Below, one piece after another: positions 7,293-61,583 of a stretch of 64,000 nt of DNA (positions are counted from its first letter, which is position 1; every line of letters begins with the position of its first letter). A program made the translations under genes and the position numbers. The stretch is from Ornithinicoccus hortensis (GTDB lineage: Bacteria > Actinomycetota > Actinomycetes > Actinomycetales > Dermatophilaceae): contig NZ_VFOP01000001.1 in NCBI RefSeq assembly GCF_006716185.1, positions 1,488,001-1,552,000 of the forward strand, in the 5' to 3' direction. The notes under the pieces are model-generated. The model was not told where the DNA came from. It saw nothing but the letters and a program-made list of their open reading frames with translations, and did not search any database.

Positions 7293-7389
7293 CTGCAGGA
7301 TTATCGGGTCACCCGGTAATCCTGCGCTTCGTAGGAGAAACTTCCCGGTCGATAGCGCCAGGTTTCGGGGTAACCCGATAATCCTGCAG
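7293..7389. repeat. Dispersed palindromic repeat, copy A (complete)
   Basis: 97 bp bounded on both sides by CTGCAG. It opens with a near-perfect palindrome (CTGCAGGATTATCGGG, TC, ACCCGGTAATCCTGC), followed by a conserved spacer containing CTTCCCGGTCGATAGCGCCA and a second inverted half ending AACCCGATAATCCTGCAG. Copies B (near 50.6 kb) and C (split around 60.2/61.5 kb) share the same sequence. It fills the gap between two convergent genes, so it can act as a terminator for both strands. Confidence 0.9.
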
Positions 7390-50544: not shown

Positions 50545-50573
50545 GGGCCCCCGGTCGCTGGCCGGCGAGGGCG

Positions 50574-50656
50574 CTTCACCCCGGAACCTGGCGCTATCGA
50601 CCGGGAAGGTTCTGCTACGAAGCGCAGGATTATCGGGTGACCCGATAATCCTGCAG
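50574..50656. repeat. Dispersed palindromic repeat, copy B (inverted orientation)
   Basis: On the minus strand it reads CTGCAGGATTATCGGG, TC, ACCCGATAATCCTGC, then CTTCCCGGTCGATAGCGCCA and CCGGGGTGAA, matching copy A with few changes but lacking the second outer half. It lies between the convergent pruA and DUF2505 genes. Confidence 0.9.
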
Positions 50657-60163: not shown

Positions 60164-60179
60164 CTGCAGGATTATCGGG
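60164..60179. repeat. Dispersed palindromic repeat, copy C, left part
   Basis: CTGCAGGATTATCGGG, identical to the first half of copies A and B. It is interrupted by the IS110 element and resumes at 61516. Confidence 0.9.
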
Positions 60180-60195
60180 ACGCTCCTATGGACCG

Positions 60196-61257
60196 TCAAG
60201 GCCTGATCGGGCCTGCTTCGAGCAGGCGGTAGAGATCGCGAGCGATGTAGCGCTTGAGGCAGCGTGTGATTTCGCGGTTGGTCTTGCCCTCGGCGGTGCG
60301 ACGGGTGACGTATTCGCGGGTGGTTTGGTCGTAGTGGATGCGGGAGAGCGCGATGGTGTGCAGTGCCCGGTTGAGCTGTCGGTCGCCGTACTGGTTGAGG
60401 CGGTGTCGGGTGGTGACCTGGCCGCTGTTGGCCGGGATCGGGGCTACGCCGGCGAGCATCGCGAAGGCGGCCTCGGAGTGGATCCGGCCTGGGTGGGACC
60501 AGGCGCACAGCACGGTCGCGGCCACGATCGGCCCGACACCGGGCTGGGCCAGGACGTCGGGGCGCCAGGCCAGCACGATCGCCCGGATGGCGTTCTCGTG
60601 CTCGGCGGCCTCCTTCGACAGGGCACGTGCCCGCCGGGCCAGGGCGCGCAAGGTCCTGACGGTCGTAGTGGTCTCCAGGTCCCACGTTGAGTTCAGACGC
60701 ATTTTCGCCGCGGTCCTGATCATCGCCGGGACCTTCTGGCCGCGGAACCGCTCGCGGATCGGCTCGGGCGCGGCGATGAGGAGGCTGAACAGCTGGCGTT
60801 GGGCGTCGGTGGAGGCGTTGACTGCGGACCGGCGCGCGGCCAGCAGCACCGAGAGCGCCTGGCGGTCCCCGCCACTGCGCGGGGTGCCGAGCTTCGCGCG
60901 GGACAGTGCTTCGCGGGCGGCGCGGATCGCGTCGAGCGGGTCGGACTTGGCGCCGTTACGTCGCTTAGCGCGTTCGGGACGGTCGAGCTCGACCACGACC
61001 TCCTGGTTGCGCTCGAGGTGCCGGGTCAGGCCGGCGCCGTGCCCGCCGGTGCCTTCGATCGCCCACGCCCGCAGTGCTGCGTGCTCGTTAGCGAACTCCA
61101 CCAGTCGGGCATAGCCGTCGGTCGTGGCTTCGACGGTGATCTCCTCAAGCACACCGCCGGTCCGCGCGTCGACCACGGCCGCTGAGTGAGTCTGGACGTG
61201 GGTGTCGACGCCGATGACGGTATCGACGACGTCACGTAGATCGGTCACACTGGTCAT
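60196..61257 (-). CDS. IS110-family DEDD transposase
   Basis: 353 residues from ATG 61257 with GGAGAG upstream. The N-terminal RuvC-like domain carries Asp18 (VIGVDTH), Glu68 (AIEGTGG), Asp106 and Asp109 (SDPLDA). The C-terminal domain has LAQPGVGPIVAATVL, MLAGVAPIPANSGQ with the catalytic Ser near 278, and RHRLNQYGDRQLNRALH. All catalytic residues are intact, so it appears functional. The frame is open further upstream, but that part lies in the RNA-coding left end. Confidence 0.95.
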   Translation of the reverse strand: MTSVTDLRDVVDTVIGVDTHVQTHSAAVVDARTGGVLEEITVEATTDGYARLVEFANEHAALRAWAIEGTGGHGAGLTRHLERNQEVVVELDRPERAKRRNGAKSDPLDAIRAAREALSRAKLGTPRSGGDRQALSVLLAARRSAVNASTDAQRQLFSLLIAAPEPIRERFRGQKVPAMIRTAAKMRLNSTWDLETTTTVRTLRALARRARALSKEAAEHENAIRAIVLAWRPDVLAQPGVGPIVAATVLCAWSHPGRIHSEAAFAMLAGVAPIPANSGQVTTRHRLNQYGDRQLNRALHTIALSRIHYDQTTREYVTRRTAEGKTNREITRCLKRYIARDLYRLLEAGPIRP

Positions 61258-61264
61258 GCGTTCT

Positions 61265-61505
61265 CTCCTTGCCTGGGAGCGGATGTGGTTCCGGTCCGGG
61301 GCGGAGACTCGGCAGGACTGTGATGAGACACGACCGGTGCGTGAACACCGGACGGTCAAGCTCCTGATCAGGCCAACTGCTCCGACCGGGCCGGGGCCGG
61401 CAACCCCAAGCGGACAAGTCCCGAGAAAGGCACAAAGCCAGTCACCCGAAGGGTCACACTCACGGTCACCGACCAACAGCCCAGCACCATCAGGCTGCAA
61501 AGGGA
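61265..61505 (-). ncRNA. Predicted IS110 bridge RNA
   Basis: On the minus strand the left end carries four guide-like segments in order. Left target guide TCGGGTGACTG (61449-61439) is identical to the junction 61523-61513. Right target guide TCGGGA (61424-61419) pairs with the other flank. Left donor guide AGGAGC (61365-61360) equals the element's right end (60187-60182). Right donor guide TCACAGT (61323-61317) is complementary to the left end (61516-61510). This is the target-loop then donor-loop order of IS621-type bridge RNA. Exact RNA ends are not determined. Confidence 0.7.
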
Positions 61506-61515
61506 ATCCTCACAG

Positions 61516-61583
61516 TCACCCGATAATCCTGCACTTCGTGGGGAACCTTCCCGGTCGATAGCGCCAGGTTCCGGGGTGAAGCG
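61516..61583. repeat. Dispersed palindromic repeat, copy C, right part
   Basis: TCACCCGATAATCCTGC followed by CTTCCCGGTCGATAGCGCCA and CCGGGGTGAAGCG. With the left part it makes a complete copy between the amidohydrolase gene and the convergent Lys-rich gene. Confidence 0.9.

What the first reader, a model, noticed from the sequence alone, without database searches (positions are those of the whole stretch)
60164..61583. IS110 element whose bridge-RNA guides can be read and which targets a host palindromic repeat
Seen: the element splits a copy of a chromosomal palindrome at its centre. Its non-coding left end (minus strand) has TCGGGTGACTG identical to the left junction and TCGGGA complementary to the right flank. 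AGGAGC is identical to the element's right end, and ATCACAGTC is complementary to the left end across the junction (8 nt, GACTGTGA). The order LTG-RTG-LDG-RDG is that of the IS621 bridge RNA (established for IS110). The left junction has CT and the right has CC at the core, suggesting a CT donor core used on a CC target. Inference: this is an autonomous, natural programmable recombinase with repeat-directed, harmless targeting. I cannot tell whether this IS subgroup has been described.
Basis: partly seen in the sequence, partly recalled or inferred. Interest (0 to 1): 0.85.

Follow-up and report, generated by a model that had tools for sequence, protein, structure and literature searches.

The report
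RNA-guided jumping gene targeting host repeats
This stretch is a small mobile DNA element that appears to carry its own guide RNA, and comparison with dozens of relatives shows that the RNA's guide loops spell out where it lands (here, inside a palindromic repeat of its host), a solid new natural example of an already known kind of programmable recombinase.

Summary
Confirmed and sharpened. Window 61515-60179 (minus) is an IS110-group element (353-aa DEDD transposase; closest solved structures IS621 and ISCro4) with a bridge-RNA-like left end. The genome holds six near-identical copies, all at the same point and orientation in a ~90-bp two-palindrome host repeat with at least 31 further, empty copies. 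The guide-coded 13-mer TCGGGTGACCCGA occurs 9 times unoccupied, each time in the repeat; all six occupied copies match it perfectly (p = 0.002). Across relatives the target guides covary with the flanks (0 of 50,000 shuffles as high). The consensus fold puts the four guides in two internal loops in IS621 order. Handshake guides are present too and covary with the target in a second, 40-48% identical group.

Correction: 'CT donor core used on CC target' is better read as one shared base, C, with donor and target differing on both sides of it. IS621 shares a CT dinucleotide.

Repeat targeting recurs in one other genus with another guide and repeat, but guide-type patterns showed no high-copy repeat in other relatives' genomes, so it is not a clade rule. 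REP targeting by IS110 elements is long known. No RNA data: expression and activity are inferred.

The parts
60180..61514 (-). IS110-group element (plus one shared core base C at either end, 60179 or 61515)
   Evidence: six-copy alignment, empty repeats, coordinates
60196..61257 (-). transposase/recombinase gene, 353 aa; presumed active-site residues D18, E68, D106, D109, S278
   Evidence: Pfam PF01548 + PF02371, NF033542; in the 23-row alignment A2 E68, D106, D109, S278 are invariant, D18 at least 90%; IS621/ISCro4 by sequence and fold; that these are the catalytic residues is by analogy with IS621
61292..61474 (-). bridge-RNA-like structured region: target-binding loop (61474-61395) and donor-binding loop (61393-61292)
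   Evidence: consensus folds and covariation, coordinates
61441..61449 (-). left target guide (LTG) TCGGGTGAC, identical to target positions 1-9
61420..61424 (-). right target guide (RTG) TCGGG, complementary to target positions 9-13 CCCGA
61418..61419 (-). handshake guide of the target loop, AC, complementary to donor GT; AU in the second group, whose donor has AT
61360..61365 (-). left donor guide (LDG) AGGAGC, identical to the right element end
61318..61323 (-). right donor guide (RDG) UCACAG, complementary to CTGTGA at the left element end
61316..61317 (-). handshake guide of the donor loop, UC, complementary to target GA
61515..61523 (-). left target half TCGGGTGAC (host repeat)
60175..60178 (-). 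right target half CCGA (host repeat), preceded by the shared C at 60179
60194..60199 (-). -35-like TTGACG at the right end; with GAGGAT in the left end (61511-61506) it would form a promoter with an 18-nt spacer in the circular form
   Evidence: TTGAC at this place in 54 of 60 loci checked; sequence
61515..61583 (+). right part of the split host repeat (arm CACCCGATAATCCTG plus second hairpin)
60164..60179 (+). left part of the split host repeat (arm)

Best explanation
An IS110-group insertion sequence whose left end encodes a bridge RNA. In the excised circle, the right end (TTGACG) and the left end (GAGGAT) would form a promoter that makes the RNA. The target loop reads nine bases of one strand (LTG) and about two to five of the other (RTG) of the host palindromic repeat. 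The donor loop reads the joined element ends. Two-base handshake guides after RTG and RDG pair with the other DNA after strand exchange. Exchange happens directly after a single shared C. Shown by sequence: guides, loops, covariation, one-base overlap, choice of repeat copies. Inferred: transcription, circle, catalysis, timing of the handshake, exact cut.
For: Six copies at one point of a repeat with different outer flanks; empty repeats give the pre-insertion site. Guide 13-mer: 9 exact unoccupied sites, all in repeat copies; 6 of 6 occupied copies perfect against 9 of 31 empty ones, p = 0.002. LTG positions 1-6 match own flank 5.26 of 6 against 2.68 shuffled (35 elements); RTG positions 10-15 3.38 against 2.05 (34 elements); 0 of 50,000 shuffles reach either, also with one element per distinct guide (21 and 17). 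Fold: 50 pairs, 97.3% of cells paired, 11 pairs with changes on both sides against 4.1 shuffled, 0 of 500; guides in two internal loops. Handshake pairs 25 of 26 in 13 elements, 23 of 24 in 12 with one repeat guide dropped; 0 of 100,000 shuffles either way. Protein.
Against: No RNA reads and no activity data. No Rfam match. RTG covariation is strong only at the first two positions; later ones agree in 0.53 or less. The window's RTG mismatches the target at position 14. Same-guide copies sit in imperfect targets: L132 4 of 6, L090 5 of 6, L103 4 of 6; L136 is out of register; L137 mismatches at the first RTG position. L086 was dropped by my motif: its LTG agrees 6 of 6 but mismatches at position 7. 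Elements and flanks are related by descent, so shuffles overstate significance; the structure counted was derived from the same alignment. My motif fixed target base 7 as G (or N), the core C, and the donor CTGTGA in the first group, so their constancy there is partly assumed. The AF2 model agrees with IS621 only at domain level (whole-chain TM 0.39-0.45, rmsd about 13 A).
Confidence: 0.9

Rival explanations
1. Same bridge-RNA system, but with an IS621-like two-base core (donor CT, target C-N): the top strand is cut after the second base and the mismatched heteroduplex is always resolved the same way.
For: Places the handshake guides exactly as published for IS621 (two bases 5' of the core). 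Left junctions read CT in the first group (CT was part of the motif).
Against: Random repair should mix outcomes, but in 6 of 6 own copies the left junction is CT and the right CC. In the second group the donor base after C is A in 12 of 12 while the LTG has U in 9, C in 2 and A in 1 there, so it is mostly not a paired core base.
Confidence: 0.25
2. Copies spread by homologous recombination or gene conversion between repeats rather than by guided insertion each time.
For: Each repeat arm offers homology; the six elements are 99-100% identical.
Against: Outer flanks are unrelated; all six occupied copies match the 13-mer against 9 of 31 empty ones (p = 0.002); arms keep private differences (GATAATCC or GAGAATCC).
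Confidence: 0.08
3. Protein-directed site specificity; the RNA-like matches are coincidence or captured target sequence.
For: Left-end segments repeat element termini, as binding sites might.
Against: Guide-flank covariation in opposite strand senses within one conserved fold.
Confidence: 0.02

Closest known systems
IS621 (E. coli) bridge recombinase, PMC11208160 and PMC11208158
   Same: DEDD + serine transposase, RNA in the left end, LTG-RTG-LDG-RDG in two internal loops, handshake guides, junction promoter, REP targeting
   Different: about 20% protein identity in the structural match; single shared C instead of a CT core; different guides and RNA sequence
ISCro4 (PDB 9t56)
   Same: best sequence hit among solved structures, E 7.5e-5
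   Different: distant; match limited to the C-terminal domain by sequence
REP-targeting IS110 elements ISPpu9, ISPpu10, ISPa11, ISRm19 (PMC1525189)
   Same: all counted copies in REP sequences (7/7, 7/7, 6/6, 4/4 in the paper's table)
   Different: Pseudomonas and Sinorhizobium elements, described in 2006 without an RNA guide
seekRNA of IS1111/IS110 (PMC11187229)
   Same: non-coding RNA selects the target; natural reprogramming; non-coding region upstream of tnp in the IS110 type (passages)
   Different: best-studied examples are of the IS1111 type, with the RNA region downstream of tnp

Membership tests
IS110 family (IS110 group) | DEDD RuvC-like plus C-terminal serine transposase domains | tested here: met
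   PF01548 and PF02371 above cutoffs, NF033542 157.8 bits against cutoff 140; E, D, D, S columns invariant in 23 rows
IS110 family (IS110 group) | long left end holding the structured RNA, short right end (IS1111 is the reverse) | tested here: met
   257 nt left, 16 nt right of the gene (coordinates); fold
IS621-type bridge RNA | two internal loops with guides in order LTG-RTG-LDG-RDG | tested here: met
IS621-type bridge RNA | guide-target covariation | tested here: met
IS621-type bridge RNA | handshake guides pairing with the non-cognate DNA | tested here: met
   (complementarity only)
IS621-type bridge RNA | shared CT core in donor and target | tested here: not met
   one shared C; empty target GAC-CC, junctions GAC-TG and GTC-CC
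IS621-type bridge RNA | RNA expressed and bound by the recombinase, RNA-dependent recombination | not testable with these tools
   no reads or assays
REP-targeting IS | copies confined to a repeated extragenic palindrome | tested here: met
   6 of 6; at least 37 repeat copies in all; that each copy is extragenic was checked only for the window's

The most novel reading that the evidence does not exclude
An actinobacterial IS110 branch (two groups, about 45% identical) works with a one-base core: strand exchange directly after a single shared C, the base before it differing between donor (T) and target (A in 43, G in 2, C in 2, T in none of 47 elements), so that each handshake guide can pair at that base only after exchange. 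Nature would thus already use the 'post-handshake' design that engineering found best in IS621, and the base after the core would be programmable.
Probability: 0.55. Interest if true: 0.6.

Novelty: new variant of a known kind. Interest (0 to 1): 0.45.

Why it matters
Bridge recombinases are being developed as genome-writing tools, and IS621 strongly prefers a CT core in target and donor, which limits target choice. This branch looks as if only one C is shared, and it shows the handshake rule as natural covariation. It also gives a clean case, with six filled and at least 31 empty copies, of an element tuned to a repeat not found in the 30 other genomes of its genus that were searched.

Tried and rejected
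Rfam search for a known bridge-RNA family: no match near the element at E up to 5 nor in the whole window at gathering scores. RNAalifold on the whole left end paired the element's first ten bases with the RDG; this is the RDG's complementarity to its own donor and would lie outside the expected transcript, so the donor loop was refolded without columns 1-12. Five weak pairs between LDG and RDG sides were left out of the count.

Generality of repeat targeting: pattern CGGNNNGACGCANCA in ten relatives' genomes. Only six of the ten carry an element whose guide, as read, fits it: G139 11 matches against 11 for the reversed control, G172 12/11, G146 8/11, G182 9/8, G055 6/3, G140 9/11. The other four (G168 11/7, G069 11/12, G176 11/12, G064 7/1) do not test their own guide. 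A looser repeat, CGRWRDGACGC in seven genomes: G139 73/83, G172 110/61, G146 98/87, G182 78/81, G168 81/69, G055 91/60, G176 107/60. Three are 1.5-1.8 times over control, but where places were listed (G055 whole, G139 in part, the others not) no guide-coded sequence had more than four copies. Counted as no sign of a high-copy repeat; low-copy repeats are not excluded.

First parse mis-set the right flank by one base and mis-picked LTG in some rows; replaced. In one search, 80 loci were offered and 38 distinct elements kept (35 with a left, 34 with a right flank); the rest were duplicates, cut by contig ends, or lacked the first-group motifs (among these L086, whose LTG has AAC, and L135, whose target loop is deleted). 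In one search, 50 loci were scanned; the 12 second-group elements with both left junction and RDG were used with the window element. L051 had an RDG but no left junction and was not used; L069 and L076 are first-group; L066 and L154 were spurious parses. In one search the script picked a wrong copy for L151; its U was read. Centre-base and orientation tests of the palindrome alone were weaker than the 13-mer test and are not leaned on (2 of the 9 empty perfect sites face the other way in the repeat).

Literature: no paper holding 'IS110', 'Actinobacteria' and 'bridge RNA' together, and three holding 'bridge RNA' and 'core dinucleotide'; open-licence PMC only, so this is no proof of novelty.

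Full report
What is there. The window lies in a 3.94-Mb single-contig genome (G000). A relative placed in the same genus (G017; locus L080, 2586 bases) has the same locus length as L110, named Ornithinimicrobium pekingense, so the host is probably Ornithinimicrobium or close to it (inference). On the minus strand, 61257-60196 encodes a 353-aa transposase with PF01548 and PF02371 and the NCBIfam IS110 model (both scans used the longer 434-aa frame). Sequence search of the PDB at E up to 1 gives only ISCro4 (7.5e-5) and IS621 (3.1e-4). An AlphaFold2 model (mean pLDDT 81.5) has IS621 and ISCro4 chains as its top eleven Foldseek matches (E 4.6e-11 to 1e-9, 18-21% identity), though whole-chain superposition is poor.

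Six copies, one target. The element occurs six times at 99-100% identity. Aligned with 250 bases of flank (the window copy with about 165-180), all six sit at the same point and in the same orientation in a repeat, and the outer flanks differ. Empty copies read, on the element's strand, GGATTATCGGGTGACCCGATAATCC with variation at the centre and elsewhere. One search gives 30 with at most one mismatch to the pattern; one more is seen: 31 empty copies and 37 in all, as a minimum. The guide-coded 13-mer TCGGGTGACCCGA occurs exactly nine times in the genome, unoccupied and every time in a repeat copy, and the pre-insertion sequence of all six occupied copies, read from their two flanks, matches it perfectly; with 15 perfect of 37, six of six has p = 0.002. 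The repeat was not found in the 30 other genus genomes searched at E up to 0.001.

Guides read from relatives. A scan of genome contigs gave 52 loci and a family search close hits in 21 of 186 genomes. Aligning the left ends shows constant donor guides (AGGAGC, UCACAG) and variable stretches where the target guides should be. Over 38 distinct elements, LTG positions 1-6 agree with the element's own left flank at 5.26 of 6 (35 elements; shuffled 2.68) and RTG positions 10-15 with the right flank at 3.38 of 6 (34 elements; shuffled 2.05); none of 50,000 shuffles reaches either, also with one element per distinct guide (21 and 17). RTG agreement is 0.97 and 0.88 at the first two positions and 0.53 or less beyond. 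Several same-guide copies sit in imperfect targets (L132, L090, L103), L136 is out of register, and L086, which my motif dropped, mismatches at position 7, so guidance tolerates mismatches.

Fold. The consensus fold of 30 left ends has a long stem closing an internal loop with LTG on one side and RTG on the other, and a second stem closing a loop with LDG and RDG. For the named structure, which was derived from the same alignment, 97.3% of 1,498 cells pair and 11 of 50 pairs show changes on both sides against 4.1 in shuffles (0 of 500); slid versions drop to 36-47% paired. Nine of the eleven are in the target-loop stem and two in the donor-loop hairpin; the outer donor-loop stem has none and so says little. 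The single-strand fold of the window has z = -3.8.

Handshake and core. In IS621 the published handshake guides follow RTG and RDG and pair with the other DNA after exchange; pairing with their own DNA locks the complex (PMC11208158, section 11 read). Here RTG is followed by AC, complementary to the donor's GT, and RDG by UC, complementary to the target's GA. In a second group (40-48% protein identity) the right end has AT (11 of 12; not found for L150) and the RTG is followed by AU (12 of 12); the target's two bases are GA, CA, GC, AA or GG and the RDG is followed by UC, UG, GC, UU or UC. Over 13 elements 25 of 26 handshake pairs are Watson-Crick, the exception being G-U; 0 of 100,000 shuffles do as well. 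The target base before C is A in 43, G in 2, C in 2 and T in none of 47 elements (35, 12), as expected if T there would pair too early with the RTG-side guide.

The overlap between junctions and empty site is one base. Left junction GAC-TGTGAGG, right junction AGGAGCGTC-CCGA, empty target GAC-CCGA: only C is ambiguous. In the first group the base after it is T on the donor side (fixed by my motif, but seen in every left end of the alignment) and G in 21, C in 10, A in 2, T in 1 of 34 on the target side; in the second group it is A on the donor side. The alternative, a two-base IS621-like core with one-sided repair, remains open.

How it probably works. The right end carries TTGAC (54 of 60 loci) and the left end GAGGAT, 18 bases apart once the ends join, matching the published scheme in which the circle forms a promoter for the bridge RNA (PMC11208158 and PMC11208160, passages). 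The RNA then brings the circle to the repeat and recombination restores the integrated form. Transcription, circle and catalysis are inferred.

Generality. In G120, of another genus, two copies carry a different guide (GTATCGAGAC + CAGGC) and sit in different surroundings; that 15-mer has 4 exact matches and 126 with at most one mismatch, none for the reversed control, and many of the listed ones lie in opposite-strand pairs 25 bases apart, so it is another palindromic repeat. In other genomes two patterns of the commonest guide type gave no sign of a high-copy repeat (six genomes whose guide fits; seven genomes, three of them 1.5-1.8 times over control without a dominant sequence where places were listed). 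Repeat targeting thus recurs but is not universal.

Known or new. REP targeting by IS110 elements has been reported since 2003-2006 (Choi et al. 2003, seen only as a reference in PMC11208160; PMC1525189 abstract and passages). Bridge RNAs and seekRNAs were reported in 2024 (PMC11208160: sections 7 and 12 and passages; PMC11208158: section 11 and passages; PMC11187229: passages). This is therefore a new instance of a known system. The one-base core and the strict handshake rule would be a new variant; I found no statement of it in what I read, and the searches cover open-licence PMC only. The six further elements whose loops Durrant et al. show aligned on their cores are in a figure that I could not see.

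Noticed in passing
window 50573-50656 and 7293-7389; at least 37 copies genome-wide: The target repeat itself is a ~90-bp two-hairpin unit (GGATTATCGGGTNACCCGATAATCC plus a GCTTC...GAAGC hairpin), like a REP pair; not found in 30 other genus genomes. Origin and mover unknown.
   Followed up: partly
G000:C1:2211972-2212159: Three repeat units in tandem, 62 bases apart, unlike the mostly scattered copies elsewhere.
   Followed up: no
G120 (L088, L102, L191-L202): A relative's genome carries 126 matches with at most one mismatch to GTATCGAGACCAGGC (4 exact), a high-copy palindromic repeat, with two IS copies guided to it.
   Followed up: partly
L116 flanks: The right flank of this Nocardioides copy holds another copy of the repeat-like left flank, including GTATGACGCAGC, close to its own guide-coded target.
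   Followed up: no
L135: A relative whose target loop looks deleted while its left end (ACTGTGAGGAT) and donor loop are present: a possibly immobilised copy.
   Followed up: no
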